Assembly: GCA_028873815.1 (NCBI GenBank)
Contig: JAPPNN010000010.1
Coordinates: 1 to 64,000 of the forward strand
Source of the DNA: Gemmatimonadota bacterium
GTDB lineage: Bacteria > Gemmatimonadota > Gemmatimonadetes > Longimicrobiales > Gaopeijiaceae
DNA: 64,000 nt
Direction: 5' to 3'
Numbering within the stretch: the stretch's first letter is position 1; every line of letters begins with the position of its first letter. Both the position numbers and the translations under genes were made by a program. Below the pieces are notes generated by a model. The model searched no databases. It saw only the letters and a program-made list of their open reading frames with translations, and had not been told where the DNA came from. Of this stretch, positions 1,058-12,313 are shown one piece after another.

Positions 1058-3418
1058 ATGGACAAGCGGAGCCTTACGGAGCGCGACATCTGCACGAAGT
1101 TCATCACGCCCGCCCTGCGCGCGGCAGGCTGGGACGAGATCTCGCAGCTTCGCGAGGAAGTGACGTTCACCGCTGGCCGCATCGTCGTGCGCGGCAGGCT
1201 GGTGGCGCGCCGCAAGCGCAAGCGCGCCGACTACGTTCTGTACGTGAAGCCGAACATCCCGATTGCGGTGATCGAGGCGAAGGACAACACCCATTCCGTC
1301 GGTGGCGGCATGCAGCAGGCGCTGGACTACGCCGAGACGCTCCGCATCCCGTTCGCGTTCTCCTCGAACGGTGACGGGTTCGTGTTCCACGACCGCACGG
1401 GGGCAAGCACGCCTCCCGAGGTGAACCTGCCCCTCGACGCCTTCCCGTCGCCGGACGATCTGTGGGGGCGCTACCGGACATGGAAGGGGTTGACGCCCGA
1501 GGCCGAGGAGGTCGTTCTCCAGGACTACTTCGAGGACGGCGGAGGCAAGACGCCGCGCTACTATCAGGCCAACGCCGTCAACGCAGCCATCGAGGCCATT
1601 GCGAAGGGGCAGGACCGAATCCTGCTGGTCATGGCGACGGGCACGGGCAAGACGTTCACCGCGTTCCAGATCATCTGGCGGCTTTGGAAGGCGGGTCGGA
1701 AGAAGCGCATCCTGTTCCTCGCCGATCGCAACGTGCTCGTCGACCAGACGATAGCGAACGACTTCCGGCCGTTCGGCGGCGCGATGACCAAGCTGTCGCG
1801 CAGAATCGACCCGTCCTACGAGGTCTTCCTCGGACTATACCAGGCGATCACGGGTCCGGAGGAGCACCAAAAGGCCTACAAGAAGCTCTCGCCCGGCTTC
1901 TTCGACCTGATCGTGATCGACGAGTGCCACCGGGGCAGTGCCGCCGACGATTCGGCATGGCGGGAGATTCTGGAGTACTTCTCCTCTGCGACCCAAATCG
2001 GCCTCACCGCTACGCCGAAGGAGACCAAGTACGTTTCGAACATCGCCTATTTCGGCGAGCCCGTGTTCGCGTACTCCCTGAAACAGGGCATCAGCGACGG
2101 GTTCCTCGCGCCCTACAAGGTGGTCAAGGTTCACATCGACCGAGACATCGAAGGCTGGCGTCCCACAAGCGGTCAGCTTGCCCGCGACGGGGCGCCGGTA
2201 GACGACCGCATCTACACGGTCAGAGACTTCGACCGCACGTTGGTCATCGACGGACGCACGAAGGCCGCCGCAGAGAAGATCACGGCGTTCCTGCGGGAGA
2301 GTGGTGATCGCTTCCAGAAGGCGATCATCTTTTGCGTCGATCAGGAGCACGCCTCGCGGATGCGCCAAGCGCTGGTCAACGAAAACGCCGATCTCGTTCA
2401 GGGGAACTCGCGGTACGTCATGCGGATCACAGGCGAGGACGAGGCCGGAAAGAACGAACTCGGGAACTTCATCGATCCTGAATCGAAATACCCGGTTCTC
2501 GTCACTACCTCGCGCCTGCTGTCGACAGGTGTCGATGTCCAGACCTGCCGGTTGATCGTACTCGAACGCGAGGTCGGGTCGATGACCGAGTTCAAGCAAA
2601 TCGTCGGTCGAGGCACCCGCGTCCACGAGGACACGGAGAAGTACTACTTCACGCTCATCGACTTCCGCGGTGCCACGGGTCATTTCGCGGACCCGGAGTT
2701 CGACGGCGAGCCGGAGCAGATCTATGAGCCCGGCCCAGACGACCCGATTCTCCCGCCAGATCCGCCTCCGAACGGACCGGACGGACCCGAGGAGGACGAG
2801 GTCATCGTCGACGACTGGGACGATCCGCCCGATCCCCCGCCGACGGGGCCACTGAAGAAGATCTATGTCGATGGCATCGAGGCCAACGTCATCGCCGAGC
2901 GGGTGCAGTACCTTGACCGGAACGGCAAGCTCATCACGGAGTCGCTCCGCGATTTCACGCGGCGAGCACTGCGCAAGCGCTTCACCAGCCTCGACGACTT
3001 CCTGAACCGTTGGAACGGGGAGGAGCGGAAGCAGGCGATTCTCGACGAGATGGCGTCCGAGGGACTGCCGTTGGCGCAGATCCTCCGGGAGTTGGGCAAG
3101 GATCTCGACCCTTTCGATCTCATCTGCCACATCGCGTTCGGTGCCGAGCCGCTGACCCGCCGCGAACGGGCCGAGAGGGTCAAGAAACGGGACGTGTTCA
3201 CCAAGTACGCGGGTCAGGCACGCGCCGTGCTCGACGCGCTCCTCGACAAGTACGCTGATCAAGGCGTCCTCGACCTCGACGACGGCAAGGTGCTCACGAT
3301 CCCGCCGCTCGACAGCCTCGGGACGCCGCTCGAACTGGTCCGCGCCTTCGGCGGGAAGCCCGGCTTCGAGCTCGCCGTGCACGAACTTCAATCCGAACTC
3401 TACCGGGAGAGCGCCTGA
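1058..3418 (+). CDS. hsdR: Type I restriction enzyme, R (helicase-nuclease) subunit
   Basis: The 786-aa motor and nuclease subunit of a type I restriction-modification complex, which translocates DNA and cuts unmethylated targets. The N-terminal part has the PD-(D/E)xK nuclease signature, seen as ADYVLYV followed by AVIEAKD (about residues 67-85). Then come an SF2 helicase Walker A ATGTGKT (193-199), motif II DECH (288-291), motif III TATP, and the C-terminal helicase motifs STGVDVQ and QIVGRGTR. The last 150 residues fit the EcoEI-type R-subunit C-terminal domain, and the length suits the EcoAI/EcoEI (type IB) group. A Pro/Asp-rich linker sits near residues 560-600. It is followed 3 bp later by hsdM. 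All key residues look intact. Confidence 0.95.
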   Translation: MDKRSLTERDICTKFITPALRAAGWDEISQLREEVTFTAGRIVVRGRLVARRKRKRADYVLYVKPNIPIAVIEAKDNTHSVGGGMQQALDYAETLRIPFAFSSNGDGFVFHDRTGASTPPEVNLPLDAFPSPDDLWGRYRTWKGLTPEAEEVVLQDYFEDGGGKTPRYYQANAVNAAIEAIAKGQDRILLVMATGTGKTFTAFQIIWRLWKAGRKKRILFLADRNVLVDQTIANDFRPFGGAMTKLSRRIDPSYEVFLGLYQAITGPEEHQKAYKKLSPGFFDLIVIDECHRGSAADDSAWREILEYFSSATQIGLTATPKETKYVSNIAYFGEPVFAYSLKQGISDGFLAPYKVVKVHIDRDIEGWRPTSGQLARDGAPVDDRIYTVRDFDRTLVIDGRTKAAAEKITAFLRESGDRFQKAIIFCVDQEHASRMRQALVNENADLVQGNSRYVMRITGEDEAGKNELGNFIDPESKYPVLVTTSRLLSTGVDVQTCRLIVLEREVGSMTEFKQIVGRGTRVHEDTEKYYFTLIDFRGATGHFADPEFDGEPEQIYEPGPDDPILPPDPPPNGPDGPEEDEVIVDDWDDPPDPPPTGPLKKIYVDGIEANVIAERVQYLDRNGKLITESLRDFTRRALRKRFTSLDDFLNRWNGEERKQAILDEMASEGLPLAQILRELGKDLDPFDLICHIAFGAEPLTRRERAERVKKRDVFTKYAGQARAVLDALLDKYADQGVLDLDDGKVLTIPPLDSLGTPLELVRAFGGKPGFELAVHELQSELYRESA

Positions 3419-3421
3419 GAA

Positions 3422-4873
3422 ATGGCCGTCGGCACGCTCGTCAAGTCCATTCAGAACATCATGCGCCAAGACGTGGGCGTGGATGGCGACGCCCAGCGCA
3501 TCAGTCAGCTCTGCTGGATGTTCTTCCTCAAGATCATCGACGATCAGGACCAGGAACTCGAAACCTTCAGGGACGGCTACCGCTCGCCGGTCCCCGCGGC
3601 TCTGCGTTGGCGGAACTGGGCCGCCGATCCGGAAGGCATCACGGGCGATGATCTGCTCGACTTCGTCAACGGCGAGCTATTCCCCCAGCTGAAGGCACTC
3701 CCGGTGCGGGCCGCTCCCCGTGCCGGTGTCGTGCGCGACGTGTTCGAGGACGCCTACAACTACATGAAGTCCGGCCAGCTGCTGCGGCAGGTCGTCAACA
3801 AGATCAACGGGATCGACTTCAACAACCTGGCCGACCGGCGGCACTTCGGGGACATCTACGAGCAGATACTCAACGACCTCCAATCGGCCGGCAACGCGGG
3901 CGAGTACTACACGCCGCGCGCAGTGACCTCGTTCATGGCCAGGATGATCGACCCCAAGCCGGGCGAGACCCTTCTCGATCCGGCGTGCGGCACCGGAGGG
4001 TTCCTGACCTGCGCCATCCGCCACATGCTCGACCATCATGTGAAGCGCCCGGAGGACCGGGCGCGGATGCAGGCCTCCCTGCGCGCGGTCGAGAAGAAGC
4101 CGCTTCCCCACATGCTCGCGGTCACCAACATGCTGCTGCACGGCATCGAGGACCCGTCGTTCCTGAGGCACGACAACACGCTGGCACGGCCCTACATCTC
4201 GTGGGGCCGCGACGAGCGCGTGGACATCGTGCTGACCAATCCGCCCTTCGGCGGCAAGGAGGAGGACGGGATCGAGTCGAACTTTCCGCCGCACTTCCGG
4301 ACGCGCGAGACGGCGGACCTGTTCCTGGCCCTCATCATCCGGCTGCTCAAGCCCGGAGGCCGGGCCGCCGTCGTCCTTCCCGACGGCTCCTTGTTCGGCG
4401 AGGGCGTCAAGACCCGGCTGAAGCAGCACCTGATGGAGGAGTGCAACCTCCACACCATCGTGCGCCTGCCGAACTCCGTGTTTCGCCCCTACGCCTCGAT
4501 CGGGACGAACCTGCTGTTCTTCGAGAAGGGGGAATCGACAAGGGAAGTCTGGTTCTGGGAGCACCTCGTGCCGGAGGGCCAGAAGGCGTATTCCATGACC
4601 CGGCCGATACGGGTGGAGCATCTCGACGACTGCGTCGAGTGGTGGGGCGGAGTGGAGCGCGAGGGTCGCGAGGAGGGTGGCCGGGCCTGGAGGGTTAGCG
4701 CCGACGAGATCAAGGCGCGTGGCTACAACCTCGACATCAAGAATCCTAATACCGTGGACGAAGAGCTCGGCGATCCCGAGGCGCTTCTGGAGAGACTGAA
4801 CAGCGCCGAAGCCGAGGTGGTGGCGGTTCGAGACCAGTTGAAGGGCATCCTTGCCGAGGCGCTATTGCGATGA
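3422..4873 (+). CDS. hsdM: Type I restriction-modification methyltransferase subunit
   Basis: The 483-aa N6-adenine methyltransferase subunit, which pairs with HsdS to methylate host DNA and with HsdR to restrict. An N-terminal helical HsdM_N domain (about 1-140) is followed by the catalytic domain. The segment GEYYTPRAV precedes the AdoMet-binding motif I DPACGTGG (186-193), and the catalytic motif IV is NPPF (273-276). The C-terminal part ends in a helical region expected to contact HsdS. It starts 3 bp after hsdR, and its TGA overlaps the ATG of hsdS by 4 bp, giving the order R-M-S in one transcript. Length and motifs are complete, so the system looks active. Confidence 0.95.
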   Translation: MAVGTLVKSIQNIMRQDVGVDGDAQRISQLCWMFFLKIIDDQDQELETFRDGYRSPVPAALRWRNWAADPEGITGDDLLDFVNGELFPQLKALPVRAAPRAGVVRDVFEDAYNYMKSGQLLRQVVNKINGIDFNNLADRRHFGDIYEQILNDLQSAGNAGEYYTPRAVTSFMARMIDPKPGETLLDPACGTGGFLTCAIRHMLDHHVKRPEDRARMQASLRAVEKKPLPHMLAVTNMLLHGIEDPSFLRHDNTLARPYISWGRDERVDIVLTNPPFGGKEEDGIESNFPPHFRTRETADLFLALIIRLLKPGGRAAVVLPDGSLFGEGVKTRLKQHLMEECNLHTIVRLPNSVFRPYASIGTNLLFFEKGESTREVWFWEHLVPEGQKAYSMTRPIRVEHLDDCVEWWGGVEREGREEGGRAWRVSADEIKARGYNLDIKNPNTVDEELGDPEALLERLNSAEAEVVAVRDQLKGILAEALLR

Positions 4874-6639
4874 ACGCCGAGCGCCTCCTCGCCCTCTATG
4901 ACCGCGTGGCCGACGCGCCGGATGCCGTTGGCAGCCTACGCCGGTTCGTGCTGGACCTCGCCGTGCGGGGGAAACTGGTGGAGCAGGATCCGGCGGATGA
5001 ACCGGCGTCGGAACTGCTGCATCGGATCGCGGCCGAGCGGGAACGACTGGTAGAAGAGCGCGTGATCAGAAGGCCGAAACCTATCGAGGTACTGGACGAA
5101 CCCCCATTCGCTATACCGACTAGCTGGAAGTGGACGAGGCTCGGGGAACTGGCAGAGCTCGTGCGGGGAGTTTCATTTCCAGCGTCGGCGAAATCTAGCG
5201 AGCCTGCCGAAGGCTTGCTCCCTTGCTTACGCTCCGGCAACATCCAAAGTAGCACTGAATGGGATGATCTGATTTATGTGCCGGAGTCGGTGGTCAAGAA
5301 TGCGGACAAGCTCGTAAAGTCGGGTGACGTGCTGATCTCCATTGCCAACAGCTACGCCCTTGTCGGAAAGTGCTCTATTGTCTCTGTGGTGCCGTACCGG
5401 GCCACGTTCGGCGCATTTCTCGCAGCAATCAGATTTCGTTTTGTGTTGCCAGAATACGCGAAGTCATTCTTGAAATCGGGTTTCTCATCGTCAGCATTTC
5501 GAGTCGGCTCGTCGCAAACCACGAATATCGCCAATATCACATTCTCAACCATACGCGGACACCCGTTCCCACTCCCACCCCTCGCCGAGCAGCGCCGCAT
5601 CGTCGCCAAGGTCGATGAACTCATGGCGCTCTGCGACCGGCTGGGGCACGCGCGCGTCGCGCGCGAGGATACCCGCGACCGGCTGACTCAGGCCAGCCTG
5701 TCCCGCCTGTCGGCGCCTGACGCGGACGAAGCGACGTTTCGGGGTCAGGCTCGCTTCGCCGTCGAGGCCCTTCGCGCGCTGACAGCCCGTATCGATCAGG
5801 TCAAGCACCTGCGCCAGGCGATCCTCAGCCTCGCCGTGCGGGGTAAGCTGGTCGAGCAGGATCCGGCGGACGAACCGGCGTTGGAGTTGCTGAAGCGGAT
5901 TGCCGGGGTCAGGGCACAGCTAGGAGTCAAGCGGGGCGGGAAGCCGCCTAGTGCGAACGAAACCCCGTTTCGCCTTCCCGCGGGTTGGCACTGGAGCAGG
6001 CTTGATGCGCTTTGCACCAAGACCGGCTCGGGAAGCACTCCCCGAGGTGGGAAGAGCGTATACAAGAAGGCCGGGATTCCCTTTCTTCGCTCGCAGAATG
6101 TCTATGACGATGGACTCCGGCTCGCCGATGTAGCCTTCGTTGGAGCCGACGTTCACGCTCGAATGGCTGGGACTGCGGTAGCAGCGAGAGATCTGCTTCT
6201 GAATATCACAGGCGGTTCGATGGGTCGGTGCTGTCGCGTGCCGGACGGTTTTGCCGAGGCCAACGTCAGCCAGCACGTGGCAATAATCCGACCGGCGGTG
6301 CCCGAAATGGCTGACTACCTTCATAAGCTAGTGCTGTCGCCTTACTTCCAAGCGTTCATCTTCCACAAGCAGACGGGCGCAGGCCGCGGTGGCCTCCCGA
6401 AGAACAAAATGGATCGGATAGCCGTCGCTGTTCCTCCCCTCCCCGAACAGCACCGCATCGTCGGCAAGGTCGATGAACTCATGGCGCTCTGCGACCGGCT
6501 GGAGGAAGCTCGCGTCGTGCGCGAGGGTACCCGTGACCGATTGCTGGATTCTCTTCTCGATGAAGCGCTCCTAGCCGACGACGCCACGGCGGAGAGGCCA
6601 ACGCAGTTCAACTGGCTACCGGGGGGGCGTCATGACTGA
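4870..6639 (+). CDS. hsdS: Type I restriction-modification specificity subunit
   Basis: A 589-aa DNA-recognition subunit with the usual two half-sites. Each half begins with a conserved segment containing LAVRGKLVEQDP (near residues 31 and 322), continues with a variable target recognition domain (about 95-235 and 360-515), and ends with a conserved helix containing PEQ/AEQ-R-IV-KVDELMALCDRL (near 238 and 524). The two halves are near-duplicates in the conserved parts and unrelated in the recognition domains, as in the family. The first recognition domain (about 5100-5580) is noticeably richer in A+T than its surroundings, which suggests import by recombination. The last 8 bp overlap the next gene. 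The actual target sequence cannot be predicted. Confidence 0.95.
   Translation: MNAERLLALYDRVADAPDAVGSLRRFVLDLAVRGKLVEQDPADEPASELLHRIAAERERLVEERVIRRPKPIEVLDEPPFAIPTSWKWTRLGELAELVRGVSFPASAKSSEPAEGLLPCLRSGNIQSSTEWDDLIYVPESVVKNADKLVKSGDVLISIANSYALVGKCSIVSVVPYRATFGAFLAAIRFRFVLPEYAKSFLKSGFSSSAFRVGSSQTTNIANITFSTIRGHPFPLPPLAEQRRIVAKVDELMALCDRLGHARVAREDTRDRLTQASLSRLSAPDADEATFRGQARFAVEALRALTARIDQVKHLRQAILSLAVRGKLVEQDPADEPALELLKRIAGVRAQLGVKRGGKPPSANETPFRLPAGWHWSRLDALCTKTGSGSTPRGGKSVYKKAGIPFLRSQNVYDDGLRLADVAFVGADVHARMAGTAVAARDLLLNITGGSMGRCCRVPDGFAEANVSQHVAIIRPAVPEMADYLHKLVLSPYFQAFIFHKQTGAGRGGLPKNKMDRIAVAVPPLPEQHRIVGKVDELMALCDRLEEARVVREGTRDRLLDSLLDEALLADDATAERPTQFNWLPGGRHD
4957..5010 (+). repeat. hsdS direct repeat 1, left copy (right copy 5830-5883)
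   Basis: DNA coding for the conserved N-terminal segment of each HsdS half is nearly identical at 4957-5010 and 5830-5883, 873 bp apart. The longest exact block is GAGCAGGATCCGGCGGA. Such repeats allow exchange of one recognition domain by homologous recombination. Confidence 0.8.
5608..5644 (+). repeat. hsdS direct repeat 2, perfect 37 bp (second copy 6466-6502)
   Basis: A 37-bp stretch coding for KVDELMALCDRL in the conserved helix of the first half is repeated base for base at 6466-6502, 858 bp away. Perfect identity at the DNA level, including third codon positions, suggests recent gene conversion or duplication between the two halves. Confidence 0.85.
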
Positions 6640-7156
6640 GGTCCGCTCGGGACGCATTGGCCGGTGGCTCGATAGAGTTTACGCGGAGAATGATTTCGAG
6701 AGGAATCTCGCCACGAGCGTGGCCGGGTTCGTGGGCCTGCTGACGTATCTCCAATTGGAGGACGGCGTGACGGCGGTCTTCGCTGCCGTCATCGCCTTTC
6801 CTCTCGTCAAGATCGTCTCCGGTTCGATTCGGACTCGGTGGAATCGGTCGCAGGAACGCCGCCGCACCCGGGACGAAATGAAGGAACTCTTCGACAGCCT
6901 CGGGTCGGAAGAACGAATCGTGGTTCAGGCATTTGTACGGCACGGCGGTGTCGCCATCACTTGGCAAGAATGCAACCGATCCGAGCAGTTCTCGACGGCC
7001 GGTATCGAGTCGTTGAGCAACAGGGGCATGCTTCACCCGAGCATTACGCAAGACGGGATGACGGAGACCTTCGTCCTGGACACCGAGTTGTTCGACTATG
7101 CCCGGAGGGCACTACCCGATGGTCCCTCCTACAGAGGTGTGGCCAATGGCATTTGA
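6632..7156 (+). CDS. Two-helix membrane protein of unknown function, hsd-linked
   Basis: A 174-aa protein starting inside the end of hsdS (8-bp overlap), so translationally linked to the restriction operon. Residues 24-40 and 44-62 form two hydrophobic segments separated by a short acidic turn, followed by a highly charged basic stretch and a soluble C-terminal domain of about 100 residues. The layout of two N-terminal membrane helices plus a cytosolic tail recalls superinfection-exclusion (SieB-like) proteins, but I see no firm sequence match. Position suggests an accessory of the restriction system or an independent anti-phage effector. Function is unassigned. Confidence 0.7.
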   Translation: MTEVRSGRIGRWLDRVYAENDFERNLATSVAGFVGLLTYLQLEDGVTAVFAAVIAFPLVKIVSGSIRTRWNRSQERRRTRDEMKELFDSLGSEERIVVQAFVRHGGVAITWQECNRSEQFSTAGIESLSNRGMLHPSITQDGMTETFVLDTELFDYARRALPDGPSYRGVANGI

Positions 7157-7237
7157 CAAAGCTGTCAAGGAAGACGCACTCGTCGCCGCGGCCCGACGAT
7201 GCTGTATCTGCGTTGGTGGGGTTGCGAGGGTCGGCGC

Positions 7238-8386
7238 ATGATCCGCGTCCCCGTGCCGCCCGAGATGCTTCGCTGGGCCTGCGACCGTGCGGGCCAAGAC
7301 GTGGCCGATGTCGCGGAGCGCGTCCCGCAGTTGTGGGCTTGGGTCCGACGCGAGCGGCAACCGACGCTGAAGCAATTGGAAAGGCTGGCCAAGGTCACTC
7401 ATACGCCGCTCGGCTACCTGTTCCTCCCGGAGCCGCCCGACGAGCGCCTCCCTGTGCCTGACTACCGCACCGTTTCGGGCACCGCCGGAGCCAAGCCGAG
7501 TCCCGACCTGCTGGACACGCTGTACACGATGCAGCGCCGCCAGGCATGGCTTCGGGATTCCTTGGTCGAGCACGAGTCGGAGCCACTGCCCTTCGTCGGA
7601 AGCGCCCAGCTCGCCGACGAGCCGGACGCGGCGGGTCGCGAGATGCGCCGCACCCTCAACTTGGACGAAGGGTGGGCGGCCAGAGCCCGAACTTGGCAGG
7701 ACGCTGTGGGGGAATTGCGCCGTGAGATTGAGCATCTTGGTGTGATGGCCGTGATAAACGGCGTGGTGGGGAACAACACCCATCGCCGACTGAGGGTGGA
7801 GGAGTTCCGCGGCTTCGCGCTCACTGACCCCTACGCGCCGCTGATCTTCGTGAACGGCGCCGACGCCAAGTCGGCACAGATGTTCACCCTCGCCCACGAA
7901 CTGGCACACGTCTGGCTTGGAACGGAGGGGGTTTCCGGCTTCGATACGCTGCTCCCCGGCGGTACCGAGGTGGAGGACTGGTGCAACCGGGCGGCGGCTG
8001 AAATGCTCGTGCCCGCCCAGGAAGTCAGAGCACGTTGGATGGCAGTCAGACGGCTGCCGGATCCCTTCGATTCGCTCGGTCGCGCATTCAAGGTGAGTCC
8101 GGTGGTCGCCGCTCGCCGCGCTCTAGACCTGACGCTTATCGAACGCAGCACCTTCTTCGACTTCTACGAGGGTTATGTGAAGCGCGAACGCAGGAGCGGT
8201 ACCAGGGCGACCGGAGGCGATTTCTTCAACAACCAGAACACACGCGTCGGCGAACTGTTCGCGACCCACGTCTTACACGCGGCGATGGAGGGCCGAATCG
8301 GCTTCAAGGCGGCCTACGACCTGACCGGGCTGCGCGGCGGAACTTTCCAGAAGTACGCTAGACGGCTTGGGATGGACCTCCCATGA
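7238..8386 (+). CDS. XRE-HTH / ImmA-IrrE family metallopeptidase
   Basis: A 382-aa protein. The N-terminal 70 residues form an XRE-type helix-turn-helix with the pattern seen in this family, ending in the GYLFLPEPP segment. The C-terminal part is a zinc peptidase domain with the HELAH motif at 220-224 and a downstream acidic stretch VEDWCNRAAAEML that would supply the third ligand. Family members (COG2856) cleave or control repressors and are often paired with toxins. A longer version from the TTG/ATG region at 7199 exists, but the ATG at 7238 has a purine-rich GAGGGT upstream and begins right at the conserved domain. Its TGA overlaps the next ATG by 4 bp, marking a two-gene unit with the DUF4411 protein. 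Confidence 0.88.
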   Translation: MIRVPVPPEMLRWACDRAGQDVADVAERVPQLWAWVRRERQPTLKQLERLAKVTHTPLGYLFLPEPPDERLPVPDYRTVSGTAGAKPSPDLLDTLYTMQRRQAWLRDSLVEHESEPLPFVGSAQLADEPDAAGREMRRTLNLDEGWAARARTWQDAVGELRREIEHLGVMAVINGVVGNNTHRRLRVEEFRGFALTDPYAPLIFVNGADAKSAQMFTLAHELAHVWLGTEGVSGFDTLLPGGTEVEDWCNRAAAEMLVPAQEVRARWMAVRRLPDPFDSLGRAFKVSPVVAARRALDLTLIERSTFFDFYEGYVKRERRSGTRATGGDFFNNQNTRVGELFATHVLHAAMEGRIGFKAAYDLTGLRGGTFQKYARRLGMDLP

Positions 8387-8907
8387 GCGCACGCCGACCC
8401 TACCTCGTGGATTCGGACGTCTTCATCACGGCGAAGAACCTGTACTATCCGTTCGATATCTGTCCCGGCTTCTGGAAGAGCCTGCTTCATCACCACCGGG
8501 CGGGCCGGGTCTACAGCATAGACCGGGTACGTAGCGAACTCCTCGCAGGTCGCAGGACGGAAGATCTCGTGCGGTGGGTGAAGAGCGAAGTCCCGAGTGG
8601 CTTCTTCCTCCCAGTCGACACCGCCGAAGTGTCGGACGCCTACACGGACATCATGATGTGGGTCCAGCGCCAAGCGAGGTACTTCGACCACGCGAAGGCG
8701 AAGTTCGCGACGGGCGCGGACGGCTGGCTGGTGGCTTACGCGCGGGTCCACGGTGCGATCGTCGTGACCAACGAGCAGAGCGCGCCGCAGTCCAAGAAGG
8801 AGGTCAAGCTGCCCGATCTTTGCGATCAGTTCGGAGTTCCACGCGACACTACGTTTGCCATGCTGCGGTCGCTGGACGTTCAGTTCGCTTGGGTGGGAGG
8901 GCGTTGA
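8383..8907 (+). CDS. DUF4411 family PIN-like protein, probable toxin partner
   Basis: A 174-aa protein. The opening YLVDSDVFI with Asp10 and Asp12 matches the first acidic motif of PIN-type nuclease folds. Further acidic positions lie in the middle and in the segment DGWLVAYA, and the protein closes with VVTNE followed by KLPDLCDQFGV, as in DUF4411. This family is regularly encoded next to ImmA/IrrE-HTH proteins, and the pair behaves as a toxin-antitoxin-like module. Here the genes overlap by 4 bp. RNA cleavage as its activity is inferred from the PIN fold, not from any residue-level proof. Confidence 0.8.
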   Translation: MSARRPYLVDSDVFITAKNLYYPFDICPGFWKSLLHHHRAGRVYSIDRVRSELLAGRRTEDLVRWVKSEVPSGFFLPVDTAEVSDAYTDIMMWVQRQARYFDHAKAKFATGADGWLVAYARVHGAIVVTNEQSAPQSKKEVKLPDLCDQFGVPRDTTFAMLRSLDVQFAWVGGR

Positions 8908-8908
8908 G

Positions 8909-9223
8909 GTGACTCGCCGCGTGCTCCGGGAGTTGAGGGGTCCGTTGAGCGCGGTCCAAATCCGCGAGTGCGTTTCGATCAGACCTCTGGCCACCGCCGG
9001 CTTCTGTGCCTGCTGCCATGGAATGGTCGCAACATCGGAAGCACGACACCGGCTCGGCGGAATCCAACTAGAATTGGACAAGTTGGAGCATCGCAGGTTG
9101 TCTGAGTACTCGAAGGAAGACGTGACGGAATGCGCAACGGGTTTTCCTTGTTCTCGTCCCGCACATGAAAGTCCTTTCGCGACGAGTATCGACCGAGGAA
9201 GAGGAGTTGTCTTCGCCGAATGA
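8909..9223 (+). CDS. Small Cys-containing protein, first gene of the RT unit
   Basis: A 104-aa reading frame from GTG at 8909, preceded by GGGAGGG about 10 bases upstream and placed one base after the stop of the DUF4411 gene. It contains a CACCH cluster (about residues 33-37) and further cysteines, which could bind a metal. Codon choice is less G/C-biased at third positions than in the chromosomal genes, like the two genes after it. Its TGA overlaps the following ATG by 4 bp. I recognise no family. The overlaps on both sides are the main reason to treat it as real. Confidence 0.5.
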   Translation: MTRRVLRELRGPLSAVQIRECVSIRPLATAGFCACCHGMVATSEARHRLGGIQLELDKLEHRRLSEYSKEDVTECATGFPCSRPAHESPFATSIDRGRGVVFAE

Positions 9224-10272
9224 CGAATCGACAAGATACATCGCCACCGGATGTGGCATACTATTACCCCGCGCCTTACTGGCTCGATAGAGAGAGTGAT
9301 TGGGTAAAATCCCTACTCCTATTCTTCGACCGGGCCGCGATCCTTCTGCCCGGCTACATGTATGGTCGACACGTAATGGCAGACCCGACATTGGCGGGGC
9401 CTCTTGAGGAGCGCGGCCTGTTGCAAGTGCTGGAGCCCAATGATTGGGTGGATGAGGACATGGCCAACCAACTCGGTGAGATCATTGTTGAACTACTGAC
9501 AACCGGGGCATTTGACGACTTGTCGAGGGAAGTCCACTTTCATGAACTTTCCTACTCTCGATTAGGATACGGCGCTGACGTTGAGCTTGCCGACTTTCTT
9601 GTCGAAGAACTCCGAGCGAAAGATCTCGCACGCCTGAGTGAGGACGGTGTTTCTGTTCCCCTTCACCCGACGGTTCGCACCACAATTCTCACGCTTCTTG
9701 GTCAACTATCGCGGGCAGCAGGAAGCAAGCGTGGCTTTGTCGTGCATCCAACAACGCAAGATCATGGCGCCGTCGGGGACCTAATTGCTACCCTATCGCG
9801 AGAAGCGATGCCGTCATGCGCCAATGTGATTGCGCTGGATCTTGAACCCGTTGGCCTCAATCTATCGTCGATTCCGCTTGATGACGTACTCCAATTCCGA
9901 GTGGAACGCCGAGACGCACACCGAGCTTACCGGCGTGATTTGCAACGCTTCATGGCTGAGCTCGCCGCCATCAACGAGCCGGAGCAGCGGAAGGCGCTGT
10001 TGCTTGAAAGGCGTGAGGAAATCGCTGATGCGGCTCACGACATCCGTCGTGTGGCCGGGCGAGCTTTCGGGCAGAGTCTTTCTTCGTGGTCTCTCGGCCT
10101 GGCCGGGGCTGCTTGGGCGGTTACCACTGGTGACCCCCTTGGGGCGGCGCTGTCCGCCGCTGGCCTCGTACCGAAGATGTTCGGCGGCGCTGACGCTGTC
10201 ACAGCGTATTCGTATCTGTTCGCTGTCCAAGAAAAGATGGGGAAGAACTATCAGAACGAGACAATGAGATGA
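9220..10272 (+). CDS. Unrecognised 350-aa protein paired with the reverse transcriptase
   Basis: The protein opens with an aromatic-rich segment (VAYYYPAPYWL), followed by WVKSLLLFFDRAAILLP and a long alpha-helical body. Around residues 217-250 comes a conserved-looking block, IPLDDVLQFRVE then AYRRDLQRF, with charged helices after it. Near residues 293-335 there is a Gly/Ala-rich hydrophobic stretch (SLGLAGAAWAV and onward) that could be a membrane hairpin or pore-like segment. The overall look resembles DUF6236-type hypothetical proteins, but I cannot confirm that. It overlaps its neighbours by 4 bp on both sides, so it is co-translated with the RT. In anti-phage RT systems such partners are often effectors. 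That role is inference. Confidence 0.75.
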   Translation: MTNRQDTSPPDVAYYYPAPYWLDRESDWVKSLLLFFDRAAILLPGYMYGRHVMADPTLAGPLEERGLLQVLEPNDWVDEDMANQLGEIIVELLTTGAFDDLSREVHFHELSYSRLGYGADVELADFLVEELRAKDLARLSEDGVSVPLHPTVRTTILTLLGQLSRAAGSKRGFVVHPTTQDHGAVGDLIATLSREAMPSCANVIALDLEPVGLNLSSIPLDDVLQFRVERRDAHRAYRRDLQRFMAELAAINEPEQRKALLLERREEIADAAHDIRRVAGRAFGQSLSSWSLGLAGAAWAVTTGDPLGAALSAAGLVPKMFGGADAVTAYSYLFAVQEKMGKNYQNETMR

Positions 10273-11909
10273 TTCCGTTCCGCACTCCGTATCAACGAAT
10301 AGCCGAACGTCTCGACATTCGTGCTGCCATTCGTGCTGCCTCGGCCCGGAACGATCTTCTTCCCCCAAGACGGGAAGACAAGGCGGGGGGTGAACTCGGC
10401 AAGCGGTTCTCGGAATACCTGGTCCGGGAGTTGGAAACCGGTCGATATGATCCGACTCCTGCCCATATCATCGCTGTACCGAAGTCACAGATCGGAACCC
10501 GGCCGGCTGCTCTACTGCCTTTTCAGGATCGCGTCGTCTATGAGGCCATCGTCGATGTTCTCAGACTTCGGGTTGCTCGCTCTCTCCTTGGGGAGGATAT
10601 CGTGTTTTGGCCACGCGCCAACGGCGCTAGCGATAAGAACTGGTCGACGTTCGAGCGTGCCATCCTCGAACAGAACGGTCAGTATGTGGTGAGTTGTGAC
10701 ATCGCGGGATTCTATGAGTCTATCGATCACAGCCAGCTGGCCAGTGCAGTTGTAGGGGCTACAGGGTATCGCGATATTGCCGACGCATTGGTACACTTTC
10801 TGGACCGGACCATGAACGGGAATCGTGGTCTACCACAAGGCCTTGAGGCGTCAGACACCTTGGCCACCATATACTTGGCTCAGGTTGATAGGGCCATGAT
10901 TCGCAACGGCTTCAGGTATATACGCCATGGCGATGACGCCCGGATCTCGGTGGATTCCTATAGTCACGGGTGTAGGGCAGCTCGGGTCATGGAAGCGGAA
11001 CTCCGTAAATGCGGATTGTTGCTAAACGGTAGCAAGACTCGCGTCTTCAAACGGCGCACTTACGAGGAGTCATTGGTCGTATACGAGAAGGAGTGGGCCA
11101 AGGCCAAGAAGTCGTTCGTTGAGGAAGCCGCAGCGCAGTTGCGAGAGGATGACGAGGCGCTTGAGGAAGCATTGGCACGATTCGACCTGGAAGAACTGGG
11201 GTGGGCGTTGTTCTACCACGGTATCATCAGTGTCGAGGAAGTCATCGATAAGTTGAAGGCCAAGATGACTCTGGAAGACGGAGCAATAGCGGCTAGGCTG
11301 TTCAACAGTATCATGGAGAAGCGCCCCACGGAGAGGAATGGAAAAGTAAGTCGACTGGAGCGAGAGATGTTCCATTGGCAGCTTAAGAAGGTTCTGTACG
11401 CCCTGGCTGCGGCCGAATCGGATGTGGCGTTATCGTCTGTCGGAGAGTTGATCCGACGGTACCCAGACAAGACCGAGATACTCTGCGAGTACATGATGCG
11501 GCTAAGGGACAGGGACGAAGCGATAGTTAGTCAGATCGAAGGTGCGCTGGACGAGGATACTATGGAATGGGCGTTCGCATGGATGATGAGGGTGCTGAGT
11601 AAGAGGCCGGGATTTGTGACGAGTGGTATCGAGAGTCGCCTGGAAAGGGTGGCGGGCAACCCTGGAGATAGCTGGCTAGCCGCAGTGGAAGCTGCAAAGT
11701 GTCTCGCCGCGATCGGGAAATTGGGTAGGGAAACTCTATTGCTCCTGTGGAACACCTGCCCTCATGCGTTTCGTATTGACCTAGCCGTGGCCGCGGTTCG
11801 AATGGAGAAGGTAGCGGATTGGGGTACAGCGTTTGTGCAGTCTGCTCGAGGGGAACGTGTTCAAGAAGTCGTGATGGAACACGAGGCTCAGGGAGGGATC
11901 GTCGGATAG
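10269..11909 (+). CDS. Reverse transcriptase with helical-repeat C-terminus (Abi/UG-like)
   Basis: The RT palm motifs of this 546-aa protein are readable. Motif A is SCDIAGFYESIDH with Asp144, GLPQG lies at 187-191 followed by ASDTLATIYLAQVD, the catalytic loop reads HGDD (220-223) where YxDD is usual, and motif D/E-like LNGSKT lies at 252-257. Residues from about 270 to 546 are almost wholly alpha-helical with repeated Leu/Arg patterns, like the alpha-repeat domains of abortive-infection RTs (AbiA, AbiK, Abi-P2) and the 'unknown group' defence RTs. There is no maturase domain and no integrase, so a group II intron or retroelement is unlikely. It is the third gene of an overlapping unit (8909-11909) that is less G+C-rich than the rest, which suggests transfer. 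Confidence 0.88.
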   Translation: MIPFRTPYQRIAERLDIRAAIRAASARNDLLPPRREDKAGGELGKRFSEYLVRELETGRYDPTPAHIIAVPKSQIGTRPAALLPFQDRVVYEAIVDVLRLRVARSLLGEDIVFWPRANGASDKNWSTFERAILEQNGQYVVSCDIAGFYESIDHSQLASAVVGATGYRDIADALVHFLDRTMNGNRGLPQGLEASDTLATIYLAQVDRAMIRNGFRYIRHGDDARISVDSYSHGCRAARVMEAELRKCGLLLNGSKTRVFKRRTYEESLVVYEKEWAKAKKSFVEEAAAQLREDDEALEEALARFDLEELGWALFYHGIISVEEVIDKLKAKMTLEDGAIAARLFNSIMEKRPTERNGKVSRLEREMFHWQLKKVLYALAAAESDVALSSVGELIRRYPDKTEILCEYMMRLRDRDEAIVSQIEGALDEDTMEWAFAWMMRVLSKRPGFVTSGIESRLERVAGNPGDSWLAAVEAAKCLAAIGKLGRETLLLLWNTCPHAFRIDLAVAAVRMEKVADWGTAFVQSARGERVQEVVMEHEAQGGIVG

Positions 11910-12200
11910 GGGTGTACACAGGTTGGCGGATCTTCGGGAAGACTCAGTTAGGGCCTCCGCGACCATTCCCACGAAGGAGTGTCTGCCTTAGAGGACGATC
12001 CGGCGGCGCCTCGGCTCCGGGCCTCTAACGGTGGTCGGCGAAGCGGCGGGCCACAGGCGTAGGAGTCCCGCCATTCAAGTACGGATTTCCCGCTTTCGCG
12101 GCACGGTCCAGCAGGGTCCAGTACAACGGCAGGAAACGCAGATCGTGCAGTCCCGTTTGACTTTAGACGACTTCCCGCCGTGATTCAGGCCACCGCGACC
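11910..12200. other. Gap between defence island and clpB
   Basis: No gene or RNA is recognisable in these 290 bp. The right edge of the island should lie in or near this stretch, because the genes to the left are A+T-richer accessory genes and clpB to the right is core. I found no matching direct repeat or integrase to mark an attachment site. Confidence 0.4.
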
Positions 12201-12277
12201 CTGCCATTTTGGCAGGACAGTCTGCCAATTTGGCCGACCTGGGCCGGTCCGCCCGCCCGAACGCTGCCAAAATGGCA
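12201..12277. promoter_or_regulatory. Three phased TGCCA-N3-TGGCA palindromes upstream of clpB
   Basis: Inverted repeats occur at 12202-12214 (TGCCA-TTT-TGGCA, extended by one C/G pair), 12223-12235 (TGCCA-ATT-TGGCC, one mismatch) and 12265-12277 (TGCCA-AAA-TGGCA). Their centres are 12208, 12229 and 12271, so they are 21 and 42 bp apart, that is two and four helical turns. This puts them on the same face of the DNA. They end 36 bp before the clpB start. The pattern is neither CIRCE (HrcA) nor the HspR box. A dedicated heat-shock regulator binding here is inference. Confidence 0.65.
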
Positions 12278-12313
12278 ACGTTGCCGACCGATATGCAACA
12301 GGAGTTTGCTACA

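What the first reader, a model, noticed from the sequence alone, without database searches (positions are those of the whole stretch)
8909..11909. Candidate undescribed anti-phage unit: small Cys ORF + unknown 350-aa protein + reverse transcriptase
Three genes overlap by 4 bp each, sit inside a defence island, are visibly richer in A+T than core genes, and end with an RT that has all palm motifs plus a helical C-terminus like abortive-infection and 'unknown group' RTs. I cannot match the 350-aa partner to the nitrilase, membrane-spanning or paired-RT partners of described DRT systems.
Basis: partly seen in the sequence, partly recalled or inferred. Interest (0 to 1): 0.8.

Follow-up and report, generated by a model that had tools for sequence, protein, structure and literature searches.

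The report
UG22 reverse transcriptase plus swappable partner
A bacterium from a little-studied phylum carries, in a cluster of anti-virus genes, a two-gene cassette: a reverse transcriptase of an already catalogued defence group, and an unstudied neighbour gene that also occurs on its own elsewhere.

Summary
Window 10269-11909 encodes a complete reverse transcriptase (RT) with an intact active site. It is not an unplaced RT: it matches PADLOC group RT_UG22 over its whole length (341 bits; next group 169). The 350-aa gene (9220-10272) overlaps it by 4 bp and has no family above cut-off; it looks like a distant relative of Pfam DUF6236. The "small Cys ORF" (8909-9223) is not kept in related loci and has an unusual codon-position profile; I drop it.

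The unit is a two-gene cassette (about 9176-11918). One other intact copy was found, in a Chloroflexota MAG (90.5% over 2745 bp); homology stops 44 bp before gene 1 and 9 bp after gene 2, so no flanking ncRNA is conserved. The partner is not an obligate RT partner: it stands without an RT in three further places in the genus (dN/dS among Chloroflexota copies 0.15-0.22) and on a Rhodococcus plasmid. Two Rhodococcus UG22 RTs lack it and are followed by a gene with a HEPN-type motif.

Best reading: a DRT-type defence cassette of known group UG22 with an exchangeable accessory gene. New variant of a known kind; function untested.

The parts
9176..11918 (+). Two-gene cassette: the block shared with the only other intact copy found (L002)
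   Evidence: blastn 90.5% over 2745 bp, ends at 9176 and 11918
9220..10272 (+). 350-aa partner, probably a distant relative of DUF6236; also occurs without an RT
10269..11909 (+). 546-aa reverse transcriptase, PADLOC RT_UG22, intact palm motifs, helical C-terminal half
8909..9223 (+).
8383..8907 (+). DUF4411 protein (PIN-like by recall); neighbour, not part of the cassette
   Evidence: PF14367 4.3e-45
7199..8386 (+). ImmA/IrrE-type (M78) protein; neighbour, overlaps DUF4411 by 4 bp
   Evidence: PF06114 2.6e-12
1058..6639 (+). Type I restriction-modification genes HsdR, HsdM, HsdS; defence neighbourhood

Best explanation
This is a DRT-type anti-phage cassette of the known RT group UG22, moved as a two-gene module into a type I RM / ImmA-DUF4411 defence locus. 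The RT is an active polymerase (inferred from its intact active site). Infection probably triggers it to make DNA that stops the host cell, as in the studied DRT and Abi systems (inferred). Because conservation ends 44 bp before gene 1 and 9 bp after gene 2, it probably does not use a conserved flanking ncRNA template as Class 2 DRTs do; priming by protein, or a template taken from the cell, is more likely (inferred). The 350-aa DUF6236-like protein is an accessory or second effector that is kept without the RT elsewhere. In Rhodococcus the gene next to the RT is a different one, with a HEPN-type motif. The neighbour of UG22 RTs is thus exchangeable (seen in two lineages), and the RT does not serve as an obligate antitoxin of the 350-aa protein (inferred from selected solo copies).
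For: RT_UG22 341 bits over residues 10-537 versus 169 for the next group; L002 RT 338 versus 167. Profile-profile: of five sets of two RTs, the window pair fits the Rhodococcus UG22 pair best (E 5.8e-22 over 395 columns), then UG21 (6.4e-19, 211 columns), UG9, UG19 and DRT4; the lead over UG21 is modest in E-value. The Rhodococcus RTs are UG22 at 470 and 455 bits and overlap by 4 bp a downstream gene with a conserved RNAVAHG (in L039 this uses a GTG start that I chose, 180 bp before the annotated one). Cassette borders and dN/dS 0.15-0.19. Solo partners with dN/dS 0.15-0.22. Mosaic history: window versus G000:C61, ImmA dS 0.25, DUF4411 0.28, partner 0.51; window versus L002, partner 0.25, RT 0.30. 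No Rfam match in 8380-12300 at E up to 1. The L038-L039 block with the two genes starts 15 bp before the RT and ends with the second gene.
Against: No function was tested. Only two intact Chloroflexota copies and two Rhodococcus RTs are at hand. The RT is only 26-29% identical to the Rhodococcus UG22 RTs, and a small tree does not join them with support, so it may be a separate subgroup. An ncRNA inside the genes, or one lost from L002, is not excluded. In Rhodococcus a further conserved block (86%) begins 4 bp after the second gene in L038 but some 350 bp after it in L039; it carries annotated genes on the other strand, and an RNA in it is not excluded. The HEPN label rests on a motif alone: no HEPN match in Pfam, NCBIfam or PDB sequences. 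Both structure models are poor (mean pLDDT 36 and 48).
Confidence: 0.55

Rival explanations
1. Obligate two-component DRT: the 350-aa protein is the dedicated effector or regulator of this RT subgroup, and the solo copies are remnants that lost their RT.
For: Both intact RT copies have the partner directly upstream. A possible RT-start relic lies behind the solo copy in G000:C61 (score 41; 8 of 2000 background stretches reach it; 44 against a best of 39 in 300 shuffles). In G174 an RT fragment and in G058 a solo partner lie behind the same cox-type operon (91% flank identity over 3847 bp).
Against: Solo copies keep open frames at dN/dS 0.15-0.22, not as decaying remnants. No RT relic is significant in L035, L036 or L037 (1158, 1531 and 633 of 2000). 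Two of two UG22 RTs in Rhodococcus lack it.
Confidence: 0.2
2. Two independent defence genes that merely sit side by side in a hot spot.
For: The partner occurs without the RT in 4 places and the RT (a fragment) without the partner in 1. The partner lies behind ImmA-DUF4411, before an AAA_5 (McrB-like by my reading) gene, or behind a molybdopterin dehydrogenase operon. The 4-bp overlap is not kept in L002.
Against: The pair is shared by the window and L002 in different flanks, with similar dS of 0.25 and 0.30.
Confidence: 0.2
3. A retroelement (group II intron or retron) or a domesticated RT without a defence role.
For: The palm domain is a general RT domain (RVT_1 8e-16) with a below-cut-off match to group II intron RTs (92.7 bits against 300).
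Against: Full-length fit to a UG group; no intron RNA in Rfam scans. It is also below the NCBIfam cut-offs of the four DRT and two retron models it touches, so no tested DRT family claims it.
Confidence: 0.05

Closest known systems
RT_UG22 (PADLOC-DB PDLC03760, labelled DRT)
   Same: Full-length profile match, palm motifs
   Different: 26-29% identity to the two Rhodococcus UG22 RTs; other neighbour gene, on the other side of the RT
Rhodococcus plasmid UG22 loci (NZ_CP023721.1, NZ_CP092100.1)
   Same: UG22 RT overlapping one further gene by 4 bp
   Different: Second gene is downstream, 210-220 aa, with an RNAVAH motif; no 350-aa gene found in 10.7 kb
UG21 RTs (for example L006, beside a Shedu SduA gene)
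   Same: Next closest RT group (169 bits)
   Different: L006 fits UG21 with 420 bits and UG22 with 156
Class 2 DRTs (DRT2, DRT3a, DRT9, DRT10; introductions of PMC12632851 and PMC13174585 read)
   Same: RT-based defence
   Different: Those use cis-encoded ncRNA templates; none is conserved in the flanks here (one comparison)
DUF6236 (PF19749)
   Same: Top Pfam hit of 5 of 5 partner homologues scanned at a lax limit, same profile region (about 150-286 of 324)
   Different: All below the curated cut-off (best 22.9 against 26.2 bits)

Membership tests
RT_UG22 (UG/Abi, DRT) | Best full-length profile match among the UG groups in PADLOC-DB | tested here: met
   341 bits, residues 10-537, profile 4-474 of 476; next 169. 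PADLOC's own cut-off is not shown by the tool
RT_UG22 (UG/Abi, DRT) | Intact RT active site | tested here: met
   D144, D222, D223 invariant in the alignment with L002, L038 and L039
RT_UG22 (UG/Abi, DRT) | Groups with other UG22 RTs in a tree | tested here: inconclusive
   Nearest rows by path after L002 are L038 and L039, but no supported clade; long branches
RT_UG22 (UG/Abi, DRT) | Anti-phage activity | not testable with these tools
   needs phage assays
Class 2 DRT | Conserved cis-encoded ncRNA beside the RT | tested here: inconclusive
   Conservation ends 44 bp upstream and 9 bp downstream of the gene pair and Rfam finds nothing, which speaks against it; but only one second copy, and RNAs inside the genes were not tested
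Class 1 UG/Abi | C-terminal alpha-helical HEAT-like (alphaRep) domain | tested here: inconclusive
   Helices over 291-540 at pLDDT 46-82, RT domain itself under 50; the 50 fold matches shown of 807 are generic solenoids and designed repeats, none at E 0.001 or better
DUF6236 | Score above the Pfam gathering cut-off (26.2 bits) | tested here: not met
   Window 12.7; L037 22.9, L002 16.2, L004 13.7, L036 13.5
HEPN (Rhodococcus second gene) | Rx4-6H motif | tested here: met
   RNAVAH conserved in 2 of 2; the motif definition is recalled
HEPN (Rhodococcus second gene) | Profile or fold match to a HEPN family | tested here: not met
   No HEPN hit in Pfam, NCBIfam or PDB sequences; fold not predicted

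The most novel reading that the evidence does not exclude
UG22 RTs are a polymerase module wired to exchangeable toxins: a HEPN-type putative RNase downstream in Actinomycetota, a DUF6236-like protein upstream in Chloroflexota. The DUF6236-like protein is itself a new stand-alone defence effector that can act with or without RT-made DNA, and the RT needs no flanking ncRNA.
Probability: 0.25. Interest if true: 0.62.

Novelty: new variant of a known kind. Interest (0 to 1): 0.42.

Why it matters
A search of the held papers for UG22 together with reverse transcriptase gave only two unrelated transcriptome papers, and one for DUF6236 gave none; the primary UG/Abi paper is not held, so this is no proof of absence. 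The locus suggests a minimal two-gene unit without a conserved flanking ncRNA, shows that the gene beside UG22 RTs differs between phyla, and points to a DUF6236-like protein that recurs next to different defence genes. Each of these can be tested directly in a laboratory strain.

Tried and rejected
Small Cys ORF as a component: rejected. Viral relatives: five scans of viral contigs. Three with the partner found none; one with the RT found none; one with the RT alignment found 5 contigs that match at 24-29% over at most about 220 residues, which I did not classify. Phages: no partner match at E up to 1; RT matches in 15 records, none covering 80% of the query; the 12 listed cover at most 41%. 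Plasmids: the window RT touches 4562 records, none over 80% of the query, 20 listed, of which I opened 5; its C-terminal half alone finds none. The Rhodococcus RT as query finds 10 records, 2 over 80%, both the known Rhodococcus ones. Structure of both proteins: models too poor to name a fold. DUF6236 in 249 phylum genomes: one weak partial match, none over the cut-off, so no family alignment could be built for a profile-profile test. RNA families: no match at the cassette. RT relics behind the solo copies in L035, L036 and L037: not significant. A membrane reading of the partner: 19-residue hydropathy reaches only 1.2 (window) and 1.45 (Rhodococcus), so not claimed.

Counts and dropped rows: 69 of 395 phylum genomes match the UG22 profile at E 0.001, many of them over part of the RT domain only. 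Of the 30 loci returned there, besides the window (L005) and the G174 fragment (L032, best fit UG22), I classified 12 with PADLOC (L006, L007, L009, L028; L008, L010, L011, L013, L022, L026, L030, L034): 0 of 12 fit UG22 best. The other 16, and the matches without a locus, were not classified. One search took 35 RTs and kept 33 (L012, with a stop, and L028 fell to the script's ORF and motif filter; the fragment L032 was not put in). One search left out 8 more that I took for group II-like without classifying them.

Papers: the primary UG/Abi paper (Mestre et al. 2022) and the 2021 FEMS review are not held; what I say of UG groups beyond PADLOC labels and held text is recalled. PMC13174585: passages and introduction. 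PMC12632851: abstract and introduction. PMC8934634 and PMC12483538: passages. All others: search listings.

Full report
What is there. The window lies in a 4.3-Mb genome in 87 contigs, 86% complete (G000, contig 53); the nearest named relative of the locus is a Chloroflexota MAG. On the + strand follow HsdR, HsdM and HsdS (1058-6639), a 174-aa protein (6632-7156), an ImmA/IrrE-type protein (7199-8386), DUF4411 (8383-8907), the 350-aa ORF (9220-10272) and the RT (10269-11909); a clpB-like gene comes next.

The RT. It matches PADLOC RT_UG22 end to end with 341 bits; the next groups are UG21 (169), UG19 (133) and UG20 (129). The palm motifs are complete. Rhodococcus plasmids carry two RTs that fit UG22 even better (470 and 455 bits). 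Of five RT pairs, profile-profile comparison ranks that one first for the window RT, but identity is only 26-29%, and a 25-row tree does not resolve the join. I call it a divergent UG22 RT.

The cassette. L002, from a Chloroflexota MAG, has both genes intact; 2745 bp align at 90.5% from window 9176 to 11918 and no further. There a short AAA-type ORF ends at 2198 and the homology starts at 2205; behind the cassette lies an ORF that I read as an IS110-type transposase fragment (both readings are mine, from the sequence). Selection is purifying on both genes (dN/dS 0.19 and 0.15). An ncRNA conserved beside the genes should have aligned; none did, and Rfam finds nothing. In Rhodococcus the block with the two genes starts 15 bp before the RT and ends with the second gene; another conserved block, at a different distance in the two plasmids, lies downstream.

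The small Cys ORF. The region between DUF4411 and the partner differs in L002, L004 and L036; about its first 70 bp have a homologue in L004, with indels. tblastn finds no ORF homologue (best E 0.42). GC by codon position is 0.61/0.54/0.61, unusual for this window's genes. I treat it as a chance ORF.

The partner. All five homologues scanned at a lax limit hit DUF6236 weakly (0.07; 5.8e-5, 0.0061, 0.042 and 0.035); L035 was scanned only at 0.001 and showed nothing. All hits are below cut-off. In 395 phylum genomes the partner occurs in 3; in the 23 held genomes of the genus, 4 copies in the same 3; in 121 genomes of the family, the same 3 plus one weak partial match. One copy of the four has the RT. 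The others: G000:C61 behind an HsdS piece, ImmA and DUF4411; G240 before an AAA_5 gene, at the start of a contig, so that its upstream side is unseen; G058 behind a molybdopterin dehydrogenase operon. A 45% identical homologue on a Rhodococcus koreensis plasmid has no RT in 21 kb. dN/dS among the five Chloroflexota copies is 0.15-0.22.

The RT elsewhere. In 121 family genomes it occurs in 2: intact here, and as an N-terminal fragment (residues 3-115) in G174, behind a nucleotidyltransferase gene and a 130-aa ORF. That fragment and G058's solo partner lie behind the same operon (91% over 3847 bp), which marks a shared hot spot.

History. Against G000:C61, ImmA and DUF4411 differ by dS 0.25 and 0.28 but the partner by 0.51; against L002 the partner differs by 0.25 and the RT by 0.30. 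Partner and RT thus probably arrived here together, next to an ImmA-DUF4411 pair with a different history.

Rhodococcus comparison. In both UG22 loci the RT is followed, with a 4-bp overlap, by a 210-220-aa gene whose conserved RNAVAHG fits the HEPN motif; in L039 the overlap rests on a start codon upstream of the annotated one. No library confirms HEPN.

Mechanism. Seen: gene content, borders, selection, different neighbours of UG22 RTs in two lineages. Inferred: polymerase activity, anti-phage role, no flanking ncRNA, no antitoxin role of the RT. According to the introductions I read (PMC13174585, PMC12632851), Class 1 UG RTs make untemplated DNA, Class 2 use cis ncRNAs, and Class 3 is less well characterised. 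I could not assign UG22 to a class from held text; its profile neighbours are UG21, UG19, UG20, UG32, UG9, UG23, DRT8 and UG33.

Verdict. A catalogued RT group with a partner that no library searched here names. Novelty lies in the partner and in its exchange, not in the RT.

Noticed in passing
12202-12214 and 12265-12277: Paired 13-bp palindrome TGCCA-(A/T)3-TGGCA just upstream of the clpB-like gene. In the own genome the pair pattern occurs at one other place, in front of dnaK. In the family 22 of 117 genomes have such pairs, reversed control 0. Of 20 loci looked at, 14 have by eye a clpB-, dnaK-, hsp20- or lon-type start behind the pair; one of each was confirmed with Pfam; the other 6 are unclear. 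Spacing mostly 39-43 bp start to start, some 63. Looks like the operator of a heat-shock regulon; the 13-mer gave one unrelated paper.
   Followed up: partly
12136-12153: 18-bp word GCGCAGATCGTGCAGTCC (one mismatch here) occurs 24 times with at most one mismatch in the own genome, reversed control 0: a dispersed repeat of unknown kind.
   Followed up: partly
L053 and L054 (G058, G174): The same place behind a cox-type molybdopterin dehydrogenase operon holds a solo partner gene in one genome and a nucleotidyltransferase gene plus an RT fragment in the other: a defence hot spot.
   Followed up: partly
L006 (G255:C2): A UG21 RT (420 bits) lies beside a Shedu SduA gene (342 bits).
   Followed up: no
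6632-7156: 174-aa protein between HsdS and ImmA with a weak match to SieB superinfection exclusion protein (E 0.011, below cut-off).
   Followed up: no
L002 1758-2198: Short ORF with an AAA-type Walker-like stretch (my reading) that ends just before the cassette in the MAG copy, as if cut by its arrival.
   Followed up: no
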